Source: Sphingorhabdus lacus (lineage in GTDB: Bacteria > Pseudomonadota > Alphaproteobacteria > Sphingomonadales > Sphingomonadaceae). From it: a stretch of 64,000 nucleotides of DNA. A program made the translations under genes and the position numbers. Location of the stretch: assembly GCF_009768975.1 (NCBI RefSeq), contig NZ_CP035733.1, positions 2,648,001 to 2,712,000 of the forward strand, in the 5' to 3' direction. The notes beneath the pieces were generated by a model. That model was not told the DNA's origin. It searched no databases and saw only the letters and a program-made list of their open reading frames with translations. Of the stretch, positions 22,523-33,465 are shown one piece after another. The number at the start of each line of letters is the position of its first letter. Position 1 is the first letter of the stretch.

Positions 22523-22645
22523 GCGCAAATGAACAGAAGAAAACGGCGCGTTAAGGACGATTTAACGTGACCTCTGCTTGAAACTTTTTGTGGCGGGGTA
22601 ACGTAACTGCTCCTGCCGCCGAACAGGCGATAACAAGAGAAACCA

Positions 22646-22828
22646 ATGGACCGTATCTTCAACTTTCTGCGCTCGGATCTTTTCCTCAGCCTCGCCGGTG
22701 GCTTTGCCCTCGGCCTTGCGGGACTGACCGTGATTAATCCGGCCAATGCCAGCAGCGCAGACGGAGACGCGGGACGTTCAATTACGGTTGGAGCGCCTGT
22801 CCATGTCGAGTCCCCTGCCCCGCAATAA
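22646..22828 (+). CDS. Small hypothetical membrane/secreted protein
   Basis: Unrecognised 60-residue protein. The first ~35 residues are hydrophobic (LFLSLAGGFALGLAGLTVI ending in ANA), which fits a signal peptide or one membrane anchor; the short tail is polar and ends SPAPQ. Upstream is a weak ACAAGAGAAA site. It overlaps the start of msrA by 26 bases, suggesting translational coupling. No domain seen; function unknown. Confidence 0.5.
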   Translation: MDRIFNFLRSDLFLSLAGGFALGLAGLTVINPANASSADGDAGRSITVGAPVHVESPAPQ

Positions 22829-23507
22829 ACGTACGCCCCGCCTGTTGCTTCTGGCAACGGCGCTCGCCTTCACCGCCGCCTGCGGCCCCGAAGGCGCATC
22901 ACCTATCGCCATGGCCCACGCCGCCGAAGGCATCGCTATTGCCGCCCCCAAGGCCCCCATCACCGAGCCCAAGGGAACCCAGACGGCTGTCTTTGCCGGC
23001 GGTTGTTTCTGGGGCATCGAAGGCGTGTTCGAACGCGTCAAGGGCGTAACCAGCGTCGAGTCCGGCTATTCCGGCGGGACCAAAGCCAGCGCCGATTATG
23101 ACAGCGTCAGCGCCGGGACCACGGCCCATGCGGAATCGGTCCGCATCCGCTATAATCCCGCCGTCGTCAGCTATAATGATTTGCTGCACATCTTCTTTTC
23201 GGTGACGCATGATCCGACCCAGCTGAACCGGCAGGGCCCCGATACGGGCCGCCAATACCGCACCGCCATCTTCCCCGCAAACGCCGCCCAACGTACCGCA
23301 GCGTCGGCCTATATCGCGCAGTTGAACAAGGCCGGATATTGGAAGAAACCGATCGTGACGAAGATCGAAAGCTTCAGCTTTTACCCTGCCGAAGGCTATC
23401 ACCAGGACTTCATGGCGAAGAACCCGGCCCATCCCTATATCGTCGCCTGGGACAAACCCAAGGTCGCCAATCTCAAGCGCCTGTTTCCAAACCGCATCCG
23501 GTCCTAA
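22803..23507 (+). CDS. msrA: Exported peptide methionine-S-sulfoxide reductase
   Basis: MsrA of 234 residues with an N-terminal extension: MSSPLPRNKRTPRLLLLATALAF followed by TAAC, which may be a signal peptide or a weak lipobox, so the enzyme probably acts in the periplasm. The catalytic motif FAGGCFWGIEGVFERVKGV begins near residue 63, with the nucleophile Cys in GCFWG. The SGYSGG and HAESVRIRYNP segments are typical. It reduces methionine-S-sulfoxide in oxidised proteins. The next genes, convergent, encode a molybdopterin oxidoreductase and cytochrome b. Confidence 0.92.
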   Translation: MSSPLPRNKRTPRLLLLATALAFTAACGPEGASPIAMAHAAEGIAIAAPKAPITEPKGTQTAVFAGGCFWGIEGVFERVKGVTSVESGYSGGTKASADYDSVSAGTTAHAESVRIRYNPAVVSYNDLLHIFFSVTHDPTQLNRQGPDTGRQYRTAIFPANAAQRTAASAYIAQLNKAGYWKKPIVTKIESFSFYPAEGYHQDFMAKNPAHPYIVAWDKPKVANLKRLFPNRIRS

Positions 23508-23540: not shown

Positions 23541-24317
23541 CTAGATCCCGGCATACCAGTCATAGTCATGGGCATCTTCCCAATAGCCGCCCTTGCCGCC
23601 GTAAAATTTGGAAAGATCGTCGGTTGCTTCGACGCGCATGACATATTTGGCCTGCTTATAGCCCAATTGCCGTTCAACCCGCAGGCGCAAGGGCGCGCCA
23701 TGTTTCACAGGCAATATGCCGTCGTTCATGCTCCACGCCAATATGGTCTGCGGATGAAAGGCATCGATCAGATCGACCGATTCATAATAGGGCATGCCCG
23801 GTCCCCATTGGTCCGCACAGTGAAAGACAATGAACCGCGCGCGGGTCGATAGGCCCGCCGCTTGCAACAACAGGCGCAGCGGTGTGCCCCGCCATTTGCC
23901 GATCGCGCTCCACCCTTCGACACAGTCATGGCGCGTAATCTGTTCACGCGACGGCATCCCCATCAGGGTTTTGAGGTCAAAATTCTGCGGGTTTTTGACC
24001 ATGCCGTCGATCCGCAAGGACCAGCGGGCAAATTTGTCGGCCACATGCGCCGCATATTCCGGTGTCCCGCCACTGATCGAGCCATTGGCTTTGAAGGTCG
24101 GCGACATATCGCTTTCGCTAAATTCGGGTGCAAGCGCACCGCGGTCCATGATCAAGCGGTGCGCCCCTTTGTTGAGCGCTTCGCCCGTACGCAGGATGGA
24201 GCGGAAGCCCGGATCCTCGGTCAGGGCGTCACACCCTGAAAGCAACAGGCCGCTGCCGCCCAGGGCGGCTCCGGTCAGGAACCGGCGGCGGGGCAGTATG
24301 ATGTTGGAATCGCTCAT
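23541..24317 (-). CDS. Tat-exported molybdopterin-dependent oxidoreductase (sulfite oxidase/YedY-like)
   Basis: Protein of 258 residues with a twin-arginine signal (RRRFLTGAALGGSGLLLSGC) that also ends in a lipobox-like LLSGC. The core shows the oxidoreductase molybdopterin-binding fold: QITRHDCVEGWSAIGKWRGT, where the Cys would ligate molybdenum, then FHCADQWGPGMPYYESVDL and the terminal ATDDLSKFYGGKGGYWE. Start ATG 24317 follows AAGGAGAAGC. ATGA overlap with the upstream cytochrome b gene shows one operon. Substrate unknown; family members reduce or oxidise sulfoxides, sulfite or related compounds. Confidence 0.9.
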   Translation of the reverse strand: MSDSNIILPRRRFLTGAALGGSGLLLSGCDALTEDPGFRSILRTGEALNKGAHRLIMDRGALAPEFSESDMSPTFKANGSISGGTPEYAAHVADKFARWSLRIDGMVKNPQNFDLKTLMGMPSREQITRHDCVEGWSAIGKWRGTPLRLLLQAAGLSTRARFIVFHCADQWGPGMPYYESVDLIDAFHPQTILAWSMNDGILPVKHGAPLRLRVERQLGYKQAKYVMRVEATDDLSKFYGGKGGYWEDAHDYDWYAGI

Positions 24318-25180
24318 GCCGCTTCTCCTTCCACAAATACAGGTTCGGGCGCGGGTGCAGGCTCGGCCTTTCCGGGCAAACGGTATTTGCCGGTAATCAT
24401 GGAACGCACCTCGTTCACGGGTCCTGCCAGAACGACCATCGCCATATGCACGAAGAAGAATCCGACCAGCCCGAAGGCACACAGGAAATGGATCGACCGC
24501 GCCGACTGCCGCCCGCCGAACAGATCAAGCAACCACGGCCACGCGGCATTCATCGCCGGCGACATGGTGAGGCCGGTAAATATGATGAGCGGCAGCATGA
24601 TGAAGATGACCGAGATATAGGCGAATTTTTGCAGGATATTATAGTCCTTGGCCGCCGCCCCGGTGGGAAAGCGCAACCGCGCATGGTCTTTGATGTCGTG
24701 CCAGATGTGAGAGAGCGACCATTCCCATTTGCGGATATGCAGATCGTTGCGCACATGCCCGTTCCACAACGAACGCAACATATAGAGCGTCAAGGCGACC
24801 GCCAATATCCATGCAAAGGTAAAATGCCAGCGCCGCGCCGCCTGCAGATCATAGCCAGACGGAATGGTGACCCAATAGGGAAAGGCGCGGCGCTTCACCT
24901 CGCCCTCCTCATTGGTCCAGATACCAAGCACACCGGTGGTTTCCACCCGCACCCCGGCAAGTTCGACAAATCCGGTATCGCCCGCATCGTCGATAACCAG
25001 CCAGGCCTTATCGTCATTCGCGCCATATTGGCCCCAATAGAGCCGTCCATGCGCATTGAAGATCATCAATCCGCTCATCAGCATGACGAGCAGGGTCAGC
25101 GCATTGGTCCAATGCCACAGCCGCGTCGACAAGCGATGCCGCTTGACCACATCCCCCGGCTTAAGATCCGCCTGCTCCAT
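24314..25180 (-). CDS. Cytochrome b (b561/Ni-Fe hydrogenase type), electron partner
   Basis: Membrane cytochrome of 288 residues with four main hydrophobic helices. RHRLSTRLWHWTNALTLLVMLMSGL holds the first haem His pair candidates, and WHFTFAWILAVALTLYML and IHFLCAFGLVGFFFVHMAMV hold further His residues. It belongs to the cytochrome b/b6 domain family that passes electrons between quinol and a periplasmic enzyme. An extra soluble loop lies between helices 1 and 2 (residues ~45-105). It overlaps the molybdoenzyme gene by 4 bases and should be its quinone link. It is not a YedZ/MsrQ-type protein by pattern. Confidence 0.88.
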   Translation of the reverse strand: MEQADLKPGDVVKRHRLSTRLWHWTNALTLLVMLMSGLMIFNAHGRLYWGQYGANDDKAWLVIDDAGDTGFVELAGVRVETTGVLGIWTNEEGEVKRRAFPYWVTIPSGYDLQAARRWHFTFAWILAVALTLYMLRSLWNGHVRNDLHIRKWEWSLSHIWHDIKDHARLRFPTGAAAKDYNILQKFAYISVIFIMLPLIIFTGLTMSPAMNAAWPWLLDLFGGRQSARSIHFLCAFGLVGFFFVHMAMVVLAGPVNEVRSMITGKYRLPGKAEPAPAPEPVFVEGEAA

Positions 25181-25299
25181 ATATCTGCTCCCTGATCGCC
25201 TGAATATCCTGCCAGAGCGTGTTCGCAGAGAATAGCGTTAAAGTTACAGGGTGAAAACGGCTCCTTGAGATTTCGCACCATCCCAGATAGACAAAGTGC

Positions 25300-25755
25300 A
25301 TGTGGAGATCCTTATCCTGCACCGTTGTCTTAACGCTCGCAGGGTGCAGCGACGTATACACAGAGACCTATGCGACTTGGCAGGAAGCCAAAGATGCGGG
25401 TGCCGTGCAACGTGGTTGGATCGGAAGCTTTGTGCCAACAAGTGCTGTCGACATAAAAGAAACGCATAACATAGATACCAACGTCCAAACTCTGTTGTTT
25501 GCAGTGCCTCCATCACAGGTCCCCGCGATGGTCCGTGGAATGCGAACGCTGGCGAAGACGGATATGACCATACACCCTTTGCTGGTTGATGACTTGTGGT
25601 TGGATATGAACGATTGGGAGCCATTTGACCGCTATATCGTGTGCGATGAGGGCAACCTTGGGTTCCTTTTCGTGCACAGCGCGACGGGGCGATCGGCATA
25701 TTTCAATGTGCAGTGGGAGGCGGCGAGAAGGGTTGAAGAGATTTGTTCAATCTGA
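25300..25755 (+). CDS. Hypothetical lipoprotein
   Basis: 151-residue protein with a short signal peptide ending in the lipobox LAGC (Cys ~16) and then SDVYTETYATWQEAKDAGAV. The rest is soluble; AGAVQRGWIGSFVPTSAVDI and IKETHNIDTN are its recognisable stretches. I recall similar uncharacterised small lipoproteins that start with CSDVY in other bacteria, without known function. It stands alone beside repeat DNA. Confidence 0.65.
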   Translation: MWRSLSCTVVLTLAGCSDVYTETYATWQEAKDAGAVQRGWIGSFVPTSAVDIKETHNIDTNVQTLLFAVPPSQVPAMVRGMRTLAKTDMTIHPLLVDDLWLDMNDWEPFDRYIVCDEGNLGFLFVHSATGRSAYFNVQWEAARRVEEICSI

Positions 25756-26003
25756 TGATGCGCATTTGTGCTTTTGAGACAAGTCGCTCTACTGTAACGG
25801 TTCGCAACGTTGTCGTGTCCTGACAGCCCGGTTTGACAGCTTTGTTGTGGAATGCGGACATTAGCTCCACAATCTAACTGGATGCTCACTCCGCTGAATT
25901 TCAATTTGCTAACTGCGCTCCTTTCTCGCCAAACTTAGATGATCTTTCTGTGGGCGGATCTAGGCGTTAATGATGATCCAACGCGGTGAAGAGGGTGAGA
26001 TTG
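25756..26003. other. Intergenic interval with dispersed repeat
   Basis: About 250 bases with no gene. It contains copy B of the dispersed repeat (25803-25837) and, just after it, GGAATGCGGACATTAG (25849-25864). The GCGGACATTAG core is, from memory, typical of intergenic elements in Sphingomonadales. Confidence 0.5.
25803..25837 (+). repeat. Dispersed intergenic repeat, copy B
   Basis: Shares CGCAACGTTGTCGTGTCC exactly with 17701-17718 and partial similarity beyond it. Non-coding context at both sites. Confidence 0.6.
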
Positions 26004-26366
26004 ATGGACGAATTTTTGAACGACGCCTTTGAACCCATAAAAATCTCGAGATCCGAGTTGAAGAGGTTGCTCGAGAGGATTGCCTCCCTGTGGCCGGCGA
26101 CAATATGCTGCACCGATAAGGCATATGGTTTGGAGAGTTTTTCGTGTCGATCAATCGTTCCCCTCGGGCGCACTGCACGTGACAACTTCGAACTCGTTGA
26201 TTGGGGTGTTCACCAAGAGATCGCTGGTATCGCCCTCGACTTTATGGGGATGGCGATAAAGCATTCAGCTAAATATCTGACATTGGTTGAGATCAGTAAC
26301 ATCGATTACGACACCATCATCGGTAACATGTATGCCCGTGACGACATTATTATCACATCGGACTAA
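26004..26366 (+). CDS. Hypothetical protein
   Basis: Unrecognised soluble protein of 120 residues (MDEFLNDAFEPIKISRSEL...). No signal peptide, membrane segment or familiar motif. ATG 26004 is chosen because of a GAGGGTGAG stretch upstream; an in-frame GTG at 25986 would add 6 residues. Its codon use looks less G/C-ending than that of the neighbouring metabolic genes. Single gene between two repeat-bearing gaps, so possibly acquired. Confidence 0.5.
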   Translation: MDEFLNDAFEPIKISRSELKRLLERIASLWPATICCTDKAYGLESFSCRSIVPLGRTARDNFELVDWGVHQEIAGIALDFMGMAIKHSAKYLTLVEISNIDYDTIIGNMYARDDIIITSD

Positions 26367-26386
26367 GTGATTTCGCGGGACTATCG

Positions 26387-26415
26387 CACCCCAAAGACAC
26401 GAAGGCGAGAAGGAA
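26387..26415. repeat. Purine-rich repeat stretch
   Basis: CCAAAGACACGAAGGCGAGA resembles the purine-rich stretches at ~16901 and ~17790. It lies just downstream of the hypothetical gene. Function unknown. Confidence 0.35.
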
Positions 26416-26497
26416 AAGATCAAAAAAGGTGTTTCAGCTAAACCGTAAATCTGAATATGCGGAAACTCCTCAGTTATATCCGTTCGATTTCCCGCGA

Positions 26498-26524
26498 TGT
26501 AACCATCCGACCTGTTCGCGCGAA
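26498..26524 (+). promoter_or_regulatory. ECF (SigF-like) promoter of the bufA2-type operon
   Basis: TGTAACC at 26498-26504, a 16-base spacer and CGAA at 26521-26524. The same arrangement with identical spacing precedes the second precursor gene on the other strand (29606-29632). From memory, GTAACC-N16-CGAA is the element described for the heavy-metal-responsive ECF factor SigF of Caulobacter. It would start a transcript with a ~45-base leader before ATG 26576. Confidence 0.75.
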
Positions 26525-26575
26525 CAGCAAGCTACCCACGATGGGTGAAACAAAATTTTCGAGGATTGGATTGAT

Positions 26576-26860
26576 ATGACAGCTACCCGTACAAAAACAT
26601 TGGCTGCTCTTGCCGGCGCGATGGCTCTTGTTTCTGCCGCCAGCTTTGCTGCAGAAGCGCCGACCGGCAGCAAGGGCCGCGCTTTGGGTGCGAATGATAC
26701 CGTTCATTGCTATGGCGTGCATAGCTGCAAGGGCAACTCCGATTGCGCAACTTCTGAAAATGAATGCAAAGGCCAGAATGCCTGCAAAGGGCACGGCTTC
26801 AAGGCATTAAAGGCCGGACAGTGCCTGTCAAAAGGCGGCGTGATCGGCGATCTGGGCTAA
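26576..26860 (+). CDS. Six-Cys bufferin-like RiPP precursor (BufA2-type)
   Basis: 94-residue exported precursor. Residues 1-25 are a Sec signal peptide (ALAGAMALVSAASFA). The mature part has six Cys (45, 51, 57, 64, 70, 83) in repeating CYGVHSCKG / ECKGQNACKG patterns and is rich in Lys and Gly. Such DUF2282-like small proteins are the substrates of MNIO enzymes (bufferins), whose Cys residues are modified so that the product binds copper. The next genes encode exactly that enzyme pair. RBS GAGGA at 26561-26565. Confidence 0.88.
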   Translation: MTATRTKTLAALAGAMALVSAASFAAEAPTGSKGRALGANDTVHCYGVHSCKGNSDCATSENECKGQNACKGHGFKALKAGQCLSKGGVIGDLG

Positions 26861-26879
26861 ACCCCGAGGCCTGCGATGG

Positions 26880-26917
26880 TCCGGTGCTTGCCGATCCCCC
26901 CATGAAAAAGCACCGGA
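26880..26917 (+). promoter_or_regulatory. Hairpin between precursor and bufB
   Basis: TCCGGTGCTT (26880-26889) and AAGCACCGGA (26908-26917) form a perfect 10-bp stem with an 18-base loop. No T-run follows, so it is more likely an mRNA-processing or stabilising hairpin, or a partial attenuator, than a full terminator. It would let the precursor be made in excess over its enzymes. Confidence 0.7.
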
Positions 26918-26933
26918 TCTGCACTGTAATGAA

Positions 26934-27782
26934 ATGCATATCATGACACCCGAAATCAGCCCCTATGCCGGCTTTGGCATTGGTCTTCGCACAGACCATT
27001 ATGGCGACTTTATCGAACATGATGTGCCCGTAGATTTTGTTGAAGTTATTTCCGAAAACTTCATGCTCGAAGGCGGGCGCCCCTTGCGTATCCTGGAACA
27101 GGTCCGCACCAAATATGATGTTATTTTGCACGGCGTATCTATGTCGGTCGGTTCGGCCCACGGCATCGATGAAGCCTATCTTGCACGGCTGAAGTGTCTG
27201 GCCGAACGAATAGACCCCCTATGGATTTCCGACCATTTGTGCTGGACGCGGACCAGCGCCCACAACAGCCATGACTTGCTGCCACTGCCGCTGACCCATG
27301 AGGCGCTGGATATGGTGTGCCGGAACATCGACCATGCCCAGAACATATTGGGTCGCGCCATGCTGTTCGAAAATCCGTCCAGCTATCTCACTTTTCCTGA
27401 AGACGAGATGACGGAATGGGAATTTATTGCCGCCATGGCGCGACGGACCGGTTGCTTCCTTCTGCTCGACATCAACAATATTTATGTCAGTGCGCATAAT
27501 CATGGCTATCGGGCAAAGGATTATCTAGCCGGTATTCCGCACGAACAAGTACGCCAGATCCACCTGGCGGGGCATACACCTGGCCCGATCATCATTGACA
27601 CGCACGACCGCGAAGTTGCTGACGGTGTGTGGTCATTGTACAAGGAGGCGCTCCGCTTCCTCGGACCGGTTGCAACCATGATCGAGCGCGACGGCAATAT
27701 CCCGTCCCTCACCGAACTTTTAAGCGAACTGGATATTGCCCGGTCGTTGGCCGGCTATGAAGCCCTGCAGGCGGTGTCATGA
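26934..27782 (+). CDS. bufB: MNIO (DUF692) RiPP-modifying enzyme BufB
   Basis: 282-residue TIM-barrel enzyme of the multinuclear non-haem iron oxidase family. Metal-ligand motifs are all visible: ILHGVSMSVGS, ISDHLCW, LFENPSSYL, LLLDINNIYVSAHNHG, QIHLAGH and IDTHDREV. In bufferin systems BufB oxidises precursor Cys residues to thiooxazole-type heterocycles, using BufC for substrate recognition. ATG 26934 or the in-frame ATG 26943 may start it; neither has a clear SD. It overlaps bufC by 4 bases. Confidence 0.93.
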   Translation: MHIMTPEISPYAGFGIGLRTDHYGDFIEHDVPVDFVEVISENFMLEGGRPLRILEQVRTKYDVILHGVSMSVGSAHGIDEAYLARLKCLAERIDPLWISDHLCWTRTSAHNSHDLLPLPLTHEALDMVCRNIDHAQNILGRAMLFENPSSYLTFPEDEMTEWEFIAAMARRTGCFLLLDINNIYVSAHNHGYRAKDYLAGIPHEQVRQIHLAGHTPGPIIIDTHDREVADGVWSLYKEALRFLGPVATMIERDGNIPSLTELLSELDIARSLAGYEALQAVS

Positions 27783-28552
27783 TCTCGCTCGCCGAACGGC
27801 AGTATCAATTCATGGCGAGTCTGCTCGCCGAAGACGCCGATCCGCTTGAGACTTCGTCGTCGAAGCTCGGCGCCGGCTTGGCCATTTATCGAAACAACTA
27901 CCGCACAACATTGATCGAAGCGCTGATGGATACATTCAAACGGACGGCGCGCTGGATCGGCGACGACGTGTTTCACCAGGCTGCAGCGCACCATGTCATC
28001 GTTAATCCCCCCAGTGGCTGGACGCTCGACGATGTGGGTTCAGGATTTGATCGCACGCTTGCCGAGCTTTTCGCGAAGAATCAGGAAGTAAGCGAACTGG
28101 CATGGATCGAATGGTTCATGCATCGCGCCTTTGGTGCGGCCAATGCCGAACCGCTGACGGTGCTTGCTTTCGCAGATGCAACGGCCGGATTTGATGACAA
28201 GGATTGGAGCACCCTCGGCCTTGAGTTTGTCCCTGGTATCCGCACCTGTCTCGTGCACCATGATGTTGCCGCGATCTGGCACGCATGCGATACCGACGAC
28301 GTATCTCATCCGCCATATGCGCTGGATGAACCCTTGGCCTGTCATGTGTATCGTGACGGGGAGCAGCCGGCCTTCATTACCGCCCCCGCATTCGAAAACC
28401 CGGCGCTCGACGCGATGGTGAACGGGGCGCATTTTGGTGACGTTCTCGACGTGCTTCTCACACTTCGCCCTCATGAGTCAGCCGTTGCGGACGCAGGCGC
28501 GATGCTGGGCCGCTGGCTGAATAATGGCTTTATTATAGGGCTACGCACCTAG
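27779..28552 (+). CDS. bufC: BufC/HvfC partner protein (DUF2063)
   Basis: 257-residue partner of the MNIO enzyme. The N-terminal ~100 residues match the DUF2063 putative DNA-binding-like domain (GLAIYRNNYRTTLIEALMDTF is its signature region), which in this system binds the RiPP precursor rather than DNA. The C-terminal half is a variable alpha/beta domain. ATG overlaps the bufB stop (ATGA), so BufB and BufC are translationally coupled. Ends 17 bases before the convergent doxX. Confidence 0.9.
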   Translation: MISLAERQYQFMASLLAEDADPLETSSSKLGAGLAIYRNNYRTTLIEALMDTFKRTARWIGDDVFHQAAAHHVIVNPPSGWTLDDVGSGFDRTLAELFAKNQEVSELAWIEWFMHRAFGAANAEPLTVLAFADATAGFDDKDWSTLGLEFVPGIRTCLVHHDVAAIWHACDTDDVSHPPYALDEPLACHVYRDGEQPAFITAPAFENPALDAMVNGAHFGDVLDVLLTLRPHESAVADAGAMLGRWLNNGFIIGLRT

Positions 28553-28569
28553 GGCGCTTTACGACGTAA

Positions 28570-29019
28570 TTAGAACCGCTTGGCGAGAAGCGCGTCACTC
28601 GAAAGCCGGCCGGGACCGCGTACAATCAGCACCATTGCGAGTGCGACCCAGATCATGTGTACCGACCACCAAGCTTCCGGATAGACGAAAATCTGGATGA
28701 CCATTGTCATGCCGAGCAGAGCGAGTGCAGACAATCGGGTAAACAGACCAATGACAAGCAGAAATGGAAACAGATGCTCTGCATAGGTCGCCATATAGGT
28801 CGCAAATAGAGGCGGAAGAGGGACGTTGCTATATTCTTCCTGAAAAAGGAATTTGGCGGTGTCGCTGATCGAGAGCCAGCTGCCCTCTTCAACCTTGGTA
28901 CGGCCCGAGCGCCAAAAAATCCCCGCCAGGGAAACGCGGACGAATAATAATGTAAGTTGCTCGACCCAGCTGTCGGGAAGCGATGAAACCAATCGGTTAT
29001 AGGGAGCGGTAATTTTCAT
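28570..29019 (-). CDS. DoxX-family membrane protein
   Basis: 149-residue protein with four hydrophobic helices: LTLLFVRVSLAGIFWRSGRT, HLFPFLLVIGLFTRLSALAL, LGMTMVIQIFVYP and HMIWVALAMVLIV. DoxX proteins are frequent companions of DUF2282/MNIO operons. ATG 29019 is chosen for GGAGAG at 29023-29028; a longer reading into upstream repeat DNA is not supported. On the same strand as the second precursor but 219 bases downstream of it. Role unknown, possibly electron transfer or membrane redox. Confidence 0.87.
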   Translation of the reverse strand: MKITAPYNRLVSSLPDSWVEQLTLLFVRVSLAGIFWRSGRTKVEEGSWLSISDTAKFLFQEEYSNVPLPPLFATYMATYAEHLFPFLLVIGLFTRLSALALLGMTMVIQIFVYPEAWWSVHMIWVALAMVLIVRGPGRLSSDALLAKRF

Positions 29020-29125
29020 TTTCTCTCCGTTTCGCCAAAGGGCGCAGCGTCGGGCAAAAGATAATAATGGTATTGCGGATGGACCCCGACGCACATGGCG
29101 CGACCCGAAGGTGGTTGGGCTAGGA

Positions 29126-29210
29126 AATGTCCGATGGTTCGCAGGTGGGGGATGTCCGGCCAAGGGAGGAGTGGGTTTCCGGAACAGGGAGCTGCATTTC
29201 ATCGGACATT
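29126..29210. repeat. Inverted repeat between DUF2282 precursor and doxX
   Basis: AATGTCCGAT (29126-29135) and ATCGGACATT (29201-29210) are perfect 10-base inverted arms 65 bases apart. The AATGTCCG-type ends resemble the dispersed element remnant near 25849. It may be a small non-autonomous element inserted between two genes of an operon. No gene is seen in 29020-29238. Confidence 0.5.
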
Positions 29211-29238
29211 GCGTCCATCCGCAAAGTCAGGACAGGCC

Positions 29239-29541
29239 TTATCCTTTGTTGCCGGCTTTCTGCGGAACCGGCTTTGCATTACCGCTGTGGGCCGTCAATG
29301 TGCCACCCATCTTTATGCACGATCCCTTCGCGACCAGCTTCCAGGCATTTCCCTGATAGTCGACTGTTGAAGTTCCGGCGCAGCTCGTTCCAGGGCCTGC
29401 GGCACAGTCGTTCTTGCCTTTCAGCGAAACGCCATAACATTTTTCTTTTCCATCGGCGGCTTGCACGGGTGCAGTGGCCAAGGTGATGGCGGCCGACAAT
29501 GCGACGGCCGCACCCGCCAGCTTTAACGAATGATTGCTCAT
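29239..29541 (-). CDS. DUF2282 four-Cys bufferin-like precursor (BufA1-type)
   Basis: 100-residue exported protein. The signal peptide ([21 protein letters not shown]) is cleaved near residue 28. The mature part has four Cys (35, 46, 54, 75) in the DUF2282 pattern [38 protein letters not shown] and [11 protein letters not shown]. This is the classical bufferin precursor, distinct from the six-Cys one at 26.6 kb. No second bufBC is present, so it either shares BufB/BufC at 26.9-28.5 kb or is not modified. ATG 29541 follows GGAGAG. Confidence 0.9.
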
Positions 29542-29605
29542 AAACTCTCCATATTCCAATAGGTCGAATGTCGCAGGATCGCTGATGAAGCGAACCTGTG
29601 ACCCA

Positions 29606-29632
29606 TTCGCAAATTGGGGCGAGACGGTTACA
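29606..29632 (-). promoter_or_regulatory. ECF (SigF-like) promoter of the DUF2282 precursor
   Basis: On the minus strand TGTAACC (29632-29626), 16 bases, then CGAA (29609-29606): the same elements and spacing as the promoter at 26498-26524. The leader to ATG 29541 would be ~57 bases. Shared promoters mean the two precursor units are probably induced together. The region 29542-29766 holds no gene. Confidence 0.75.
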
Positions 29633-29766
29633 GGAAGCCGAAGTTTTTCAGAAAGACAGCCGGTTGGATGAAGGCATAAGATCCCCTCTCTCCTCTCCAG
29701 ATGAGAGATTTCGGGTTGTTTCTTCGTGCCTTAATGCCGTCGTACCGTCCAATATGACTGAAGGGA

Positions 29767-32469
29767 TTAAGGCCCCTGCGCAGGCGGCGCCAACCCGGCC
29801 ACCCGTTGTGCGGCACGCGCAGTTACGATGCCCAGGTCGACGCTTCCGCTATCCTTCCCGAGGTTCGCGACCGACGGCAGGGTCATTTCAACGCCGACGA
29901 CATTGGCCGCCAGTGCGGCGATGCGCAGGCTGTAGCGGCCATAGGGCACGAATTCGAACAGGAAGAACCCGTCATATTCGCTGCGCGTTGTCTTCACGAC
30001 CCGCCCGTTTTTGTCCACCAGTTCGATGTCGACCCCGCTCAGGATTTTTCCGCCTTCGCGTTGCAACTGGCCGGAAATCTCGCCTGCCGAAACCAGTGGT
30101 AGTTCGATAACAACGGGCACGCCGGGACGCGGGGTCACGACGATGCCGCTGGTGGCGGGCTGGACAAAGGGATCGGGCAGGCTGGACGCATCGATTCCGA
30201 TCAGAACCGGCTCATAAGGTTGCAAGCCATCGAGGATTGTCCGGCCCTCGGCGTCGGTCGGCGGGCCGCGCGCCGATAATCCGGCGGTCAACTCTACTTC
30301 TTTTTGCACCGCCTCGCCCGGTTGGCGGATGCCGTCGGCATTTTCGTCCTGGAACACGACCGCAAAGGCCTGACCCGTTGACGCGAGCTTTTCCGATGCA
30401 AAGCGCATGCCGCCATCGTGCGGATTGGGTCCGATGCTGAAGGCGAGGTTCAGACCGGCAGCGACCGATCCGTCGCTGGCAGCCTCGACCTGGCCGGTCA
30501 GCGCAAAATGTTTGAAGCGGCGGGTGTGGCCAAGGGCCAGCCGTCCGCGGGAATCGCCATTCGAATAGCCGGCCTCGACTTTCCAGTCCGATTTTTCGCC
30601 GGCGCGCCATTCCGCCGTGATCTTGGATTCGCGAAAACCGCTATCGCCGGTTAGTCCGACCGTCGCTTCGCCGCGCAAACGCAGACCACCGATGCGGCCC
30701 GACAGGCGCAATGATGCGTCCAGCCGCGCATCGGGGCTTATTCCGAACGGACTTTGGTCCTTCACCCAATCCAGTTCGGCGCTTGCATTTATCTTATTGA
30801 TATTAAACGATAATCGTGATTCGACCTCTAACCGGTGGCCGCCATCGATACGGTCGATATAGCGCACTTCGGCACGGATCGGGAAATAATGGCGGCCAAA
30901 GCGGAGGCTGTGGTCGATCGAAAGGCTGTTGAACCGGCGGACATCGCGGTCATAGCGTTCGCTTTCATAGCCGCCGAGCAGCCAGGCGCTTTCGCCGCTG
31001 ATCAGCGTTTCGCCCACCTGCGCCAGCACCTGTCCACGCAGGGCATAGCCGCCCACCAGATTGGCCGCGCTCGCCAGTTCGACCAAGGTGGGGCCAATGG
31101 CGCGGCGGACCGATCCTTCGAGATAATAGTTCCGTTGCCCGCGCAAAACCGCGCTGACAAAGGAGGCCGCGACTGACGTCTTGGGGTCAAGACCGCGCTC
31201 GACCCCGAACCCGCCGCGCCAGCCGAGATAGTCATTGGGGTCAACCCCATCCAGATTGATGAGGTCGCGCCCCGCATCCTGCACGCCTGCCCAATAATAG
31301 GTTTCGCGCGGCGGGATGGAGCCGAGGCCCACCGGGATCATCTTCACATCGCGGCGGATCTGGCCCTGCGGACCGTACAGCACGACTTCGAAGCGGTTCT
31401 GCCCGTAGAGCAGCGGTACATCGAGAAATTCATAGCGGCCATCGCCCCGGCTCTGGACATAGCCGATCAGCTGTTCGTTGCGGTAGAGTTCCGCATCCCA
31501 CCCATTGGGCAGCTCGCCGCGGAATACAGTGCGGTCGAAACTGTCGGGGCGGTTCAACGGGCGGTTGGTGACGAACGCCCCGCGGCCGGCGGTGGTCTGG
31601 ATTCCGAGCGGCGTTACATTGGTCGAAACATCGCCTAGCGCCCAGTGCGTCGCCTTCAGCGGACCGAGCAGGCCGCCGTCCGGATCGGTGCGGTATGCGC
31701 GCATGCGCAGATTTTCGGGAACACCCCGGTCGTCGGACGACAGGCGTGCATCAAAGGAAGCGCCCGCAACTTCGCCGCTGGCGTAAATTTCATAGCGCGC
31801 GTCCAAACGGCGGCCGCTGCGCTGGTCGCGGGCGGCGCTGACTGACGCCACGACGTCAACCGAAGGCGTGCGGAACATTTTATAGGGATCGCGCGCCTGG
31901 GGCAGGCTGGCGAGGTCGAAGGCTTTGGTCGGCCGCACCTTCCCCGCCCGCGCCTTGCGTTCTTCGGCGAGTTCGAACGGCAATTTGCGGTCCGCGCTGA
32001 TGATCAGCAGCGCATTGGACAGATCGGCCTTCACCTCGACATTCAGCCAGCTGGCGAGCACCTTGGTGTCGACACACCAGCCTTCGGGAACATCGCGGAT
32101 CGCATTTGCGGCGACGGGCGCGCTTTTGTTCACGATTTGTACTGTATTGGATTCCCGGTCAAGGGTGAAGGTGCGGCTTTCTTCGAACAACCAGCCAGTT
32201 GCGCGGCGCGACTTTTTATCGACACGGACGGGAAGATCAAAGGCAATGATAACATCGGCGAAATCGACGCACACGCCACTATCGGTCTGATAGCCGCGAA
32301 CGCCTTCGCCCACGCGCCATTGACCAACGCGGACATCGAACAAAAGCGCATCATCTTCATTCGGCTGCCAGGTCGACGCACGCGCCGAAGCGACGGGAAT
32401 GGTGAGCATCCCCGTCGCCACGGCCAACGCCGTCAGTGCCTGTGCGGCCTTATGAAAATATCTACGCAT
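29767..32469 (-). CDS. Usher-like outer membrane protein of a chaperone/DUF4402 fibre system
   Basis: 900-residue protein with a Sec signal peptide (to ~ASA at residue 30). An N-terminal periplasmic region (~30-180) is followed by a central part rich in alternating beta-strands (~200-690), which is usher-like: ELPNGWDAELYRNEQLIGYV and VPLLYGQNRFEVVLYGPQGQ. The C-terminus has DENADGIRQPGEAV, a Ca-binding SdrD-like repeat start, and a carboxypeptidase-regulatory-like domain (~790-880). It lies 29 bases after a PapD-like chaperone and downstream of a DUF4402 gene, so it is probably the secretion pore for that subunit. It is divergent from classical FimD. Confidence 0.78.
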   Translation of the reverse strand: MRRYFHKAAQALTALAVATGMLTIPVASARASTWQPNEDDALLFDVRVGQWRVGEGVRGYQTDSGVCVDFADVIIAFDLPVRVDKKSRRATGWLFEESRTFTLDRESNTVQIVNKSAPVAANAIRDVPEGWCVDTKVLASWLNVEVKADLSNALLIISADRKLPFELAEERKARAGKVRPTKAFDLASLPQARDPYKMFRTPSVDVVASVSAARDQRSGRRLDARYEIYASGEVAGASFDARLSSDDRGVPENLRMRAYRTDPDGGLLGPLKATHWALGDVSTNVTPLGIQTTAGRGAFVTNRPLNRPDSFDRTVFRGELPNGWDAELYRNEQLIGYVQSRGDGRYEFLDVPLLYGQNRFEVVLYGPQGQIRRDVKMIPVGLGSIPPRETYYWAGVQDAGRDLINLDGVDPNDYLGWRGGFGVERGLDPKTSVAASFVSAVLRGQRNYYLEGSVRRAIGPTLVELASAANLVGGYALRGQVLAQVGETLISGESAWLLGGYESERYDRDVRRFNSLSIDHSLRFGRHYFPIRAEVRYIDRIDGGHRLEVESRLSFNINKINASAELDWVKDQSPFGISPDARLDASLRLSGRIGGLRLRGEATVGLTGDSGFRESKITAEWRAGEKSDWKVEAGYSNGDSRGRLALGHTRRFKHFALTGQVEAASDGSVAAGLNLAFSIGPNPHDGGMRFASEKLASTGQAFAVVFQDENADGIRQPGEAVQKEVELTAGLSARGPPTDAEGRTILDGLQPYEPVLIGIDASSLPDPFVQPATSGIVVTPRPGVPVVIELPLVSAGEISGQLQREGGKILSGVDIELVDKNGRVVKTTRSEYDGFFLFEFVPYGRYSLRIAALAANVVGVEMTLPSVANLGKDSGSVDLGIVTARAAQRVAGLAPPAQGP

Positions 32470-32498
32470 GACCGTGAAAAAGTGGCGCCTTCAGCCCC

Positions 32499-33353
32499 TT
32501 AGGGAAGGACGGTGCGCACCTGTGCAATCAATCCGCCGCCGGCTTCGGGGGCTTCATAATAGGAAAGCACGATATCACCCTTCATCTTCGCCGCGACTTC
32601 CGGGGGAAGGGGGAGAGAGACCGAGCGGCTGGCAACTTCAGGATAGATGGCGATGCCCTTGGCGACCGACAGCGGTTCTGACTGGCCGGGCTTGGTCACA
32701 TGGATCTCGCCAAATATGGATTTATCCCCCTGACGCGCCATATTGAATTCGAGGGTCGGGCCTTCATTGTCTTTGCCCATGCGCACATTGGTCAATGCGG
32801 CGGTTCCCTGCAAATTGCCCTTGCGGACGATGACGGGGATGCTGATTCCGTAAATAGGGATCAGCTGGATGCGCAGACTGTTGCCCGCATCCGCCGAACC
32901 GTCAGCAGCAGGCGTCTTGGGAATGGCGCGAAAGAGCATATGGGCCCGATATTCACCGTCGGGCAACGCATCGATCGCCTGCAGGCCGATGCGGATCGAC
33001 TGCGGCTGGTTGGGCGGCAGGGTCACGCGGCGCGGCGCATAGCGGATGACATCGAGCGCAGATTTTTCCTTATCGTTCGCGACCGTCGCATCGACATCGT
33101 CAAGCCGTCCCTGATCATTCATCCGCCGCAGTTCGAGCGTGATGCGATAGGTCGCCTCTTCATCACCGATATTGTTGAGGATGACCTCGGTCCCGCGCCG
33201 GCCATCCAATATGACCCGCGTCGGTGCGATCAGAAGATCTCCGGCCGCATGGGCAGGTGCCGAAACACCTGTTGTAACGGCACCCAAAAGGGCACCGCCC
33301 AATATGATACGGGCGGCAAAATGACGGCATGCCAAAAAGAGCCGTGTGCGCAT
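32499..33353 (-). CDS. PapD-like periplasmic pilus chaperone
   Basis: 284-residue protein. Signal peptide to ~APAHA near residue 36. The PapD N-terminal immunoglobulin fold is visible as LLIAPTRVILDGRRGTEVIL then YRITLELRRM and RYAPRRVTLPPNQPQSIRIG. The C-terminal domain contains IPVIVRKGNLQGTAAL. These chaperones donate a strand to fibre subunits and deliver them to the usher. ATG 33353 is preceded by GGGGAA; an upstream start would precede a poor signal peptide. Same strand as and 29 bases before the usher-like gene. Confidence 0.85.
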   Translation of the reverse strand: MRTRLFLACRHFAARIILGGALLGAVTTGVSAPAHAAGDLLIAPTRVILDGRRGTEVILNNIGDEEATYRITLELRRMNDQGRLDDVDATVANDKEKSALDVIRYAPRRVTLPPNQPQSIRIGLQAIDALPDGEYRAHMLFRAIPKTPAADGSADAGNSLRIQLIPIYGISIPVIVRKGNLQGTAALTNVRMGKDNEGPTLEFNMARQGDKSIFGEIHVTKPGQSEPLSVAKGIAIYPEVASRSVSLPLPPEVAAKMKGDIVLSYYEAPEAGGGLIAQVRTVLP

Positions 33354-33465
33354 AAATATTCCCCATCCACATGTTGTGCGGCGTTCGGCCTGGTCGCCTG
33401 TCCGCACGGGTCCATGATGCGGGCATGCCAGAATATGGTTACCATCCGGCTAACGAATGGATTTC

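What the first reader, a model, noticed from the sequence alone, without database searches (positions are those of the whole stretch)
26498..29632. Double bufferin-like copper-RiPP locus with two different precursors and one enzyme pair
Seen: a six-Cys exported precursor followed by a MNIO enzyme (BufB) and BufC on the plus strand, and a four-Cys DUF2282 precursor followed by DoxX on the minus strand, converging. Established (from memory): bufferins are exported RiPPs whose Cys are converted by BufB/BufC, and bind copper. Inference: the two precursors form one copper- or metal-stress response, with differing metal-binding chemistry. The Cys pattern of the six-Cys precursor (CYGVHSCKG / ECKGQNACKG) may give an unreported product.
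Basis: partly seen in the sequence, partly recalled or inferred. Interest (0 to 1): 0.75.

Follow-up and report, generated by a model that had tools for sequence, protein, structure and literature searches.

The report
Two bufferins sharing one enzyme pair
A Sphingorhabdus-like bacterium carries a 3.2-kb copper-stress cassette in which two different known kinds of small exported copper-binding peptide sit under the same kind of stress promoter and probably share one modifying enzyme pair, so it can be used to test whether an enzyme of one class also serves peptides of the other.

Summary
The five genes are known families: BufA2 (six Cys), BufB, BufC (DUF2063) and, converging on them, DoxX and BufA1 (DUF2282, four Cys). 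The six-Cys peptide is an ordinary Buf2 bufferin, not a new product. 'One enzyme pair' holds at the locus but not in the genome, which has a second complete Buf1 cluster 0.67 Mb away.

Both precursors carry an exact sigma-F promoter (GTAACC-N16-CGAA), as does the genome's sigF-nrsF; MsrA and an MsrP-like pair next door carry one-mismatch sites. In Caulobacter the matching regulon is copper-induced.

Same-genus genome G313 has the cassette at 94% DNA identity, promoter to promoter, in unrelated flanks, with one MNIO in the genome. Of 298 family genomes, 50 carry BufA1 divergent from BufA2; 39 of those 50 have one MNIO hit, next to a BufA2. In seven genomes Buf2-clade MNIOs go with BufA1 and no BufA2. 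Against this, some loci keep separate pairs.

Best reading: one Buf2-type BufB-BufC pair modifies both precursors; the native Buf1 enzymes were lost. This is a new variant of a known kind. No product was seen; mass spectrometry is decisive.

The parts
26499..26524 (+). sigma-F (ECF16) type promoter GTAACC-N16-CGAA of bufA2-bufB-bufC; its end lies 51 bp before the bufA2 ATG
   Evidence: exact match; exact match also in S. contaminans and G313; consensus from PMC3511200
26576..26860 (+). bufA2: Buf2-family six-Cys precursor with signal-peptide-like start
   Evidence: NF050166 98.5 bits, cut-off 60
26934..27782 (+). bufB: MNIO bufferin maturase of the Buf2 clade; Gly254 follows the ERD motif where most Buf2-type enzymes have Asp
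   Evidence: NF050167 367.9 bits, cut-off 310; PF05114; trees; site
27779..28552 (+). bufC: DUF2063 partner protein (PME-type 1 by family; overlaps bufB by 4 bp)
   Evidence: PF09836 60.1 bits; no NCBIfam hit; no sequence match in the PDB at E 0.001
28570..29019 (-). doxX: DoxX/HvfX-like membrane protein, accessory gene of bufferin clusters
   Evidence: PF07681 64.1 bits; NF050144 54.5 bits, below its cut-off of 80
29239..29541 (-). bufA1: Buf1-family four-Cys DUF2282 precursor, closest to precursors that elsewhere have their own Buf1 MNIO
   Evidence: PF10048 84.2 bits; tail type and 90% core identity to L158
29606..29631 (-). sigma-F type promoter GTAACC-N16-CGAA of bufA1-doxX; its end lies 64 bp before the bufA1 ATG
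   Evidence: exact match; exact match also in S. contaminans and G313
22598..22623 (+). putative sigma-F site (1 mismatch) before msrA
   Evidence: a one-mismatch site is also there in S. contaminans
22746..23507 (+). msrA, peptide methionine sulfoxide reductase; possible member of the same sigma-F group
   Evidence: PF01625 190 bits; TIGR00401 173.8 bits, cut-off 108.1
23541..24482 (-). MsrP/YedY-like molybdopterin oxidoreductase; the real start is probably further inside
   Evidence: PF00174 116 bits; best NCBIfam MsrP 94.6 bits, below its cut-off of 207
24314..25180 (-). cytochrome b561-type membrane subunit upstream of the MsrP-like gene
   Evidence: PF01292 83.9 bits
25222..25247 (-). putative sigma-F site (1 mismatch) before the cytochrome b / MsrP-like pair
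   Evidence: a one-mismatch site is also there in S. contaminans, its start 82 bp from that of the bufA2 site

Best explanation
This is a copper/oxidative-stress cassette bounded by two inward-facing sigma-F promoters. When NrsF releases the ECF sigma factor SigF, both converging transcripts are made: bufA2-bufB-bufC and bufA1-doxX. The single Buf2-type BufB-BufC pair converts central Cys residues of both precursors, BufA2 and BufA1, to copper-binding thiooxazoles. The two bufferins then go to the periplasm and buffer copper, and DoxX assists. The cassette's BufA1 comes from the lineage that elsewhere has the order bufA1-bufB1-bufC1-doxX; the Buf1 enzymes were lost and the Buf2 pair took over. 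Shown by sequence: gene identities, promoter motifs, layout, conservation, and MNIO counts in relatives. Inferred: expression, modification of either peptide, the shared enzyme, copper binding, the role of DoxX and the history.
For: (1) G313, same genus, has the cassette at 94% DNA identity over window 26469-29658 in unrelated flanks and one MNIO hit in the genome, so its BufA1 has no other maturase in sight. (2) The mature part of BufA1 is identical in window, G313 and S. contaminans; window against S. contaminans: 13 nucleotide and 0 amino-acid changes in 100 codons. (3) 50 of 298 family genomes carry BufA1 divergent from BufA2 (51 loci; 50 of the 51 have an MNIO right after BufA2); 39 of the 50 genomes have exactly one MNIO hit, 38 at the hybrid locus and 1 (G214) at another BufA2. 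(4) Buf2-clade MNIOs occur with BufA1 and no BufA2 above cut-off in two parts of the tree: G037, G115, G169, G273 and G181, G320, G321; all seven have one MNIO hit. (5) Window BufB lies inside the Buf2 clade, whose split from Buf1-operon enzymes has 100% SH-aLRT. (6) Exact sigma-F sites before both precursors, none within 1 mismatch in the 11 kb around the second Buf1 cluster. (7) BufA2 itself has a D-Cys-Ala site like one in BufA1.
Against: The window's own genome and S. contaminans both carry a second MNIO that could act in trans. G313 is 99% complete with 5% contamination in about 80 contigs, so a second MNIO could be missing. One MNIO per genome also fits BufA1 being unmodified. Separate pairs exist elsewhere: 3 family genomes (L201-L203) have a BufA1 with its own MNIO near BufA2-MNIO, L232 and L281 are double clusters, 9 of the 50 hybrid genomes have further MNIOs, and 15 of 70 listed BufA2 have no listed BufA1 within 6 kb. 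The Lys-contacting Asp is Gly in window BufB, but 45 of 49 hybrid-locus enzymes keep Asp, so the site does not explain dual use. BufA1 in hybrid loci has another tail (51 of 51), so they are parallel cases, not the same pair. The DoxX tree does not resolve the cassette's origin.
Confidence: 0.62

Rival explanations
1. Each precursor has its own enzymes: BufB-BufC of the cassette act on BufA2 only, and BufA1 is modified in trans by the Buf1-type MNIO-DUF2063 pair of the second locus (contig 3346-3348 kb).
For: A complete second Buf1 cluster (DUF2282-MNIO-DUF2063-DoxX) exists in the same genome and a second MNIO of similar score, with BufA1 and DoxX, in S. contaminans. MNIO subgroups follow precursor families in the published network (PMC12452194, section 19). 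Double clusters with one pair per precursor exist (L201-L203, L232, L281).
Against: G313 has the cassette and one MNIO hit. The second-locus MNIO is in another Buf1 subclade than the enzymes that go with the BufA1 type of the cassette, and its own precursor has another tail. No sigma-F site within 1 mismatch was found in 11 kb around it, so the two would not be switched on by the same promoter type.
Confidence: 0.22
2. BufA1 of the cassette is not modified and works as a plain four-Cys periplasmic metal binder.
For: 31 of 150 listed BufA1 genes have no listed MNIO within 6 kb (4 of their 29 loci are cut by a contig end), and PMC12452194 (Discussion) raises unmodified precursors as a possibility.
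Against: Mature BufA1 is unchanged between three genomes and keeps the same four-Cys pattern as Buf1-operon precursors (51 of 51 in hybrid loci, 39 of 40 in operons). PMC12452194 reports DUF2282 genes without any MNIO gene in only 21 of 4072 genomes.
Confidence: 0.11
3. The six-Cys precursor gives a new, unreported product with a different metal chemistry.
For: The modification of Buf2 products was not yet identified in PMC12452194; window BufB has Gly at the residue that contacts the substrate Lys in the published model.
Against: BufA2 is a clear NF050166 member. [quoted passage not shown] FonB F250A and F250D still gave products consistent with 5-thiooxazole (PMC13097082, section 14), so a change at this residue alone is not expected to change the chemistry.
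Confidence: 0.05

Closest known systems
Caulobacter SigF regulon: nrsF-sigF with the DUF2282-DUF692-DUF2063-DoxX operon (CC3252-CC3257), the second operon CC2907-CC2905, and MsrPQ/YedY (CC2748) (PMC3511200, PMC8224329)
   Same: Same promoter consensus GTAACC-N16-CGAA and same gene families, Cu-induced; two MNIO operons and an MsrP-like gene in one regulon.
   Different: In Caulobacter each precursor has its own MNIO-DUF2063 pair and the units are apart. Here the precursors converge on one pair, MsrP-like and MsrA genes are next door, and sigF-nrsF is elsewhere.
Buf2 (BUF_6/12Cys) bufferin cluster
   Same: bufA2-bufB-bufC order; curated BufA2 and BufB models are met.
   Different: Linked to a DUF2282 precursor and DoxX, and under a sigma-F type promoter; [quoted passage not shown]
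Divergent hybrid loci doxX-bufA1 / bufA2-bufB-bufC with sigF-nrsF in family relatives, with named examples Sphingobium indicum BiD32 and Novosphingobium naphthalenivorans
   Same: Same five families, one local enzyme pair, sigma-F sites; window BufB is nested among their enzymes.
   Different: There the precursors diverge and BufA1 has a TPKGxGSL-like tail (51 of 51). Here they converge, BufA1 has a GGTL tail, and sigF-nrsF lies elsewhere.
Captophorins (5-thiooxazole metallophores; FonBC, PMC13097082)
   Same: MNIO plus DUF2063 partner; the class includes Cys-Lys and DUF2282 precursor groups.
   Different: The characterised FonBC acts on Lys-Cys (EGKCG) repeats, which are absent here.

Membership tests
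Buf2 (BufA2) bufferin precursor | Match to the curated BufA2 model with six conserved Cys | tested here: met
   98.5 bits against cut-off 60; six Cys
Buf1 (DUF2282) bufferin precursor | PF10048 match with four Cys, the two central ones being the modified pair | tested here: met
   84.2 bits against 22.4; four Cys; the modification itself was not testable
BufB MNIO maturase | Curated BufB model and PF05114 | tested here: met
   367.9 bits against 310; PF05114 350.9 bits; sequence relatives with solved structures, 3BWW and MbnB entries among them
BufB MNIO maturase, Cys-Lys (Buf2) specificity | Asp at the FonB-Phe250 position, just after the catalytic Asp | tested here: not met
   Gly254 in window BufB, also Gly in S. 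contaminans and G313; Asp in 58 of 62 enzymes that follow a BufA2, one of the 62 unreadable. The position was mapped through the ERD motif by me; 3BWW has Phe there
BufC / PME-type 1 partner | DUF2063 (PF09836) N-terminal domain, gene next to the MNIO | tested here: met
   60.1 bits; overlaps bufB by 4 bp
SigF (ECF16) regulon | GTAACC-N16-CGAA upstream of the transcript, with sigF-nrsF in the genome | tested here: met
   exact sites before bufA2, bufA1 and the sigma gene; NrsF PF06532 141.4 bits. In NCBIfam the NrsF model gives 80.7 bits, below its cut-off of 300
SigF (ECF16) regulon | SigF-dependent, metal-induced transcription | not testable with these tools
   needs RNA measurements in wild type and a sigF mutant
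Bufferin / captophorin product | Cys-derived thiooxazoles that bind copper | not testable with these tools
   needs mass spectrometry, UV spectrum and metal binding

The most novel reading that the evidence does not exclude
Buf2-type BufB-BufC pairs are general two-class maturases in Sphingomonadales: they have repeatedly replaced the native Buf1 enzymes, modify DUF2282 precursors as well as six-Cys precursors, and in Sphingorhabdus the whole set moves as a 3.2-kb promoter-to-promoter copper-defence cassette.
Probability: 0.43. Interest if true: 0.62.

Novelty: new variant of a known kind. Interest (0 to 1): 0.5.

Why it matters
Antoine et al. (PMC12452194, Discussion) leave open whether one MNIO-partner complex can modify several precursors, and Gadgil et al. 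(PMC13097082) find that active-site residues of MNIO families govern which residues around Cys are accepted. This cassette and its relatives give a small natural test across the two bufferin classes: one enzyme pair, two precursor families, one promoter type, and genomes in which no other MNIO was found. It also suggests sigma-F control of a Buf2 operon outside Caulobacter, and a cluster of copper buffering with methionine-sulfoxide repair.

Tried and rejected
Remnants of bufB1/bufC1 between bufA1 and doxX: only chance-level tblastn hits in the part of the output shown, so loss of the Buf1 enzymes rests on gene order and on the kinship of BufA1.

DoxX tree to place the cassette's origin: unresolved; the window DoxX falls among both hybrid and operon rows.

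Gly at the Lys-contact site as the cause of dual specificity: rejected as sufficient, because 45 of 49 hybrid-locus enzymes keep Asp.

Hidden BufA2 in the four 'BufA1 without BufA2' loci L204-L207: reading the gap in three frames on the bufB strand shows no Cys-rich precursor.

Number of sigma-F sites as evidence: rejected. Exact sites in the genome (11) do not exceed the backwards control (18), nor do the <=1-mismatch sites (207 against 376), and 4 sites with <=1 mismatch in the window is near the shuffle mean of 2.89 (30 of 100 shuffles reach it). S. contaminans L221 has a fifth <=1-mismatch site, inside the MsrP-like gene. Position and conservation carry the argument; the two one-mismatch sites (msrA, cytochrome b) are weaker than the two exact ones.

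Limits of the counts: the BufA1 list was cut, so BufA1 counts are lower bounds; adjacency was judged from hit places. BufC was found in 49 and DoxX in 49 of the 51 hybrid loci. 32 of 55 Buf1 operons (the window genome's second locus among them) and 3 double loci were fetched as such. Trees are 'quick' trees rooted at the midpoint; the four BufA1-only loci of G037, G115, G169 and G273 group with weak support (SH-aLRT 40-49).

Papers: sections 14, 19, 20, 21, outline and passages of PMC12452194; sections 13, 14, outline and passages of PMC13097082; section 6 and passages of PMC3511200; passages of PMC8224329, PMC3420878, PMC6180224, PMC8315932 and PMC12538549. Other papers were seen only in search listings with abstract starts. 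Supplementary files were not read. The primary bufferin paper (Leprevost et al.) is known here only through these papers.
Full report
What is there. The window holds, on the + strand, bufA2 (26576-26860), bufB (26934-27782) and bufC (27779-28552), and converging on the - strand bufA1 (29541-29239) followed by doxX (29019-28570). BufA2 and BufB pass their curated NCBIfam cut-offs (98.5 against 60 bits; 367.9 against 310 bits). BufC has the DUF2063 domain, BufA1 is a strong DUF2282 match and DoxX a strong DoxX match. The six-Cys peptide is therefore a member of the known Buf2 family, not a new kind.

The rest of the genome. A second MNIO lies at contig position 3346787-3347584, in a complete Buf1 cluster with its own DUF2282 precursor, DUF2063 protein and DoxX (frames; DUF2282 by family search; the other two by homology to the window's proteins). 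The genome has two DUF2282 genes and one BufA2 above cut-off.

Regulation. The Caulobacter SigF consensus is GTAACC-N16-CGAA (PMC3511200, section 6 and passages). Exact copies end 51 bp before the bufA2 ATG and 64 bp before the bufA1 ATG. The whole genome has 11 exact copies (the backwards control has 18); one of the others ends 154 bp before the first start codon of an ECF sigma gene that is followed by an NrsF gene. Within the 64-kb window four sites have at most one mismatch, and each stands before a gene of one 7-kb stretch: msrA, the cytochrome b/MsrP-like pair, bufA2 and bufA1. The number alone is not above chance (mean 2.89 in shuffles); the positions are what matters, and all four sites are present in S. 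contaminans, next to a fifth inside a gene. The second Buf1 cluster has no site within one mismatch in the 11 kb fetched around it. In Caulobacter the SigF regulon contains both bufferin-type operons and MsrPQ, is induced by copper, and sigF inactivation severely impaired growth in copper (PMC8224329, passages).

The cassette as a unit. Sphingorhabdus contaminans (L221) has the same layout and both exact promoters. BufA1 differs there by 13 nucleotides and no amino acid. Genome G313 of the same genus has the cassette at 94% DNA identity; homology begins at window 26469 and ends at 29658, just outside the promoters, and the rest of the 15.8 kb fetched shows only short repeat-like matches to the window. 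The four BufA1 differences between window and G313 all lie in the first 23 residues, in the signal-peptide-like part. G313 has one MNIO hit in the whole genome (99% complete, 5% contamination). Of 45 genomes of the genus, 5 have BufA2 above cut-off. The convergent cassette is in 3 of those 5 (window, S. contaminans = G301, G313); in the other 2 (G310, G312) no BufA1 or DoxX was found in the 15-17 kb fetched around BufA2-BufB-BufC.

Relatives in the family. Searches of the same 298 genomes gave MNIO hits in 115, DUF2282 in 107 and BufA2 above cut-off in 67. Among 150 listed BufA1 hits, 63 were operonic with an MNIO, 51 divergent beside BufA2, 31 with none within 6 kb, 4 near an MNIO without BufA2, and 1 convergent, which is the window. 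The 51 divergent loci lie in 50 genomes, and 50 of the 51 have an MNIO right after BufA2; L199 of G214 has none. 39 of the 50 genomes have exactly one MNIO hit (38 at the hybrid locus, G214 elsewhere), 2 have two adjacent pieces that look like one gene, and 9 have more. 48 of the 51 loci also carry a SigF-like and/or NrsF-like frame. Exact promoter motifs (spacer 15-17) occur within 350 bp before 38 of 51 BufA2 and 30 of 51 BufA1 matches of these loci, 68 of 102 in all, against a mean of 0.09 in 100 shuffles; for comparison 20 of 40 operon BufA1, 5 of 11 BufA2 without BufA1 and 7 of 31 lone BufA1 have one. In the named scan 14 of 80 loci hold both precursor types: divergent in Sphingobium indicum BiD32 and two Novosphingobium species among others, same-strand in two Dyella species, and with two MNIOs, one per precursor, in L232 and L281. 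Dyella lipolytica has another MNIO locus about 27 kb away (L236).

Which enzymes serve BufA1. The MNIO tree separates Buf1-operon enzymes from Buf2-type enzymes with 100% SH-aLRT; window BufB is nested in a group of 30 otherwise made of hybrid-locus, BufA1-only and same-genus cassette enzymes (SH-aLRT 95). In two parts of the Buf2 side MNIOs have BufA1 and no BufA2. In G037, G115, G169 and G273 the MNIO stands opposite BufA1-DoxX with no Cys-rich frame in the gap and no BufA2 hit in the genome. In G181, G320 and G321 it follows four-Cys precursors in an operon, with no BufA2 above cut-off in the genome. All seven have a single MNIO hit. Together with G313 and the 39 single-MNIO hybrid genomes, this is the case for Buf2-type enzymes acting on DUF2282 precursors. 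It remains an inference from gene content. Against it, 3 family genomes (L201-L203) keep a BufA1 with its own MNIO near a BufA2-MNIO pair, and 15 of 70 listed BufA2 have no listed BufA1 within 6 kb.

Where the cassette's BufA1 came from. Its core is up to 90% identical to precursors of Buf1 operons, and the 22 best-scoring of 130 matches are all of that class. Its tail is of the GG[ST]L type, seen in 25 of 40 operon, 19 of 31 lone and 0 of 51 hybrid precursors, while 51 of 51 hybrid and 6 of 40 operon precursors have the TPKGxGSL type. Buf1 operons of the genus (seven loci, leaving out the second-locus type and the Buf2-clade ones) have BufA1 74-88% identical to the cassette's, followed by an MNIO and, in the six that reach far enough, DoxX 54-77% identical. 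No remnant of the missing enzymes was seen between bufA1 and doxX. So the Buf1 pair was probably lost after, or when, the Buf2 pair arrived.

Specificity site. Most Buf2-type enzymes have Asp right after the ERD motif (58 of 62); PMC13097082 ties this site to contact with the substrate Lys. The three cassette enzymes have Gly. One of the four central Cys of BufA2 is in a D-Cys-Ala setting like BufA1's first central Cys. These facts fit a relaxed enzyme but do not prove it, since enzymes of most other hybrid loci keep Asp.

Novelty. The general idea that one MNIO might modify several precursors is in print (PMC12452194). In the sections and passages read of that paper and of PMC13097082, and in the listings of searches (search 10 was swamped by the word buffering), I found no description of mixed Buf1/Buf2 loci or of a sigma-F-bounded Buf2/Buf1 cassette. 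Supplementary tables and figures were not available, so earlier listing cannot be excluded. I file it as a new variant of a known kind.

Noticed in passing
window 25252-26452: A 1.2-kb stretch absent from S. contaminans L221, where homology jumps from 25251 to 26453. It holds two frames (25300-25755, 25986-26366) without Pfam match and separates two sigma-F sites that start 82 bp apart, back to back, in L221.
   Followed up: partly
L186, L187, L188, L189 (genomes G014, G019, G272, G114): A separate MNIO clade is preceded by a Cys-rich protein frame of roughly 190 residues or more, in which no signal peptide was obvious by eye; possibly a protein-sized MNIO substrate.
   Followed up: no
L144, L330, L331 (G181, G320, G321): Buf2-clade MNIOs in operons with one or two four-Cys precursors of an unusual DUF2282 type (motif HSCAGQAK) and no BufA2 above cut-off.
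   Followed up: partly
L336, L337, L338, L339, L342: In five Buf1 operons of the genus an exact sigma-F site also starts 113-159 bp before the doxX match, suggesting that DoxX can be made on its own.
   Followed up: no
L104 (G199), L099 (G244): The hybrid-locus MNIO is read in two overlapping pieces in different frames, as after a frameshift or sequencing error. Left as it is.
   Followed up: no
L115-L143: 31 of 150 listed BufA1 genes have no listed MNIO within 6 kb; 19 of these 31 have a GG[ST]L tail. Four of the 29 loci are cut by a contig end.
   Followed up: no
window 29767-33407 (-): A 900-aa protein with a C-terminal carboxypeptidase-regulatory-like domain and a 302-aa protein without Pfam match. 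By eye they resemble an usher/chaperone pair; both are conserved next to the cassette in S. contaminans but were not found in the 15.8 kb around it in G313.
   Followed up: no
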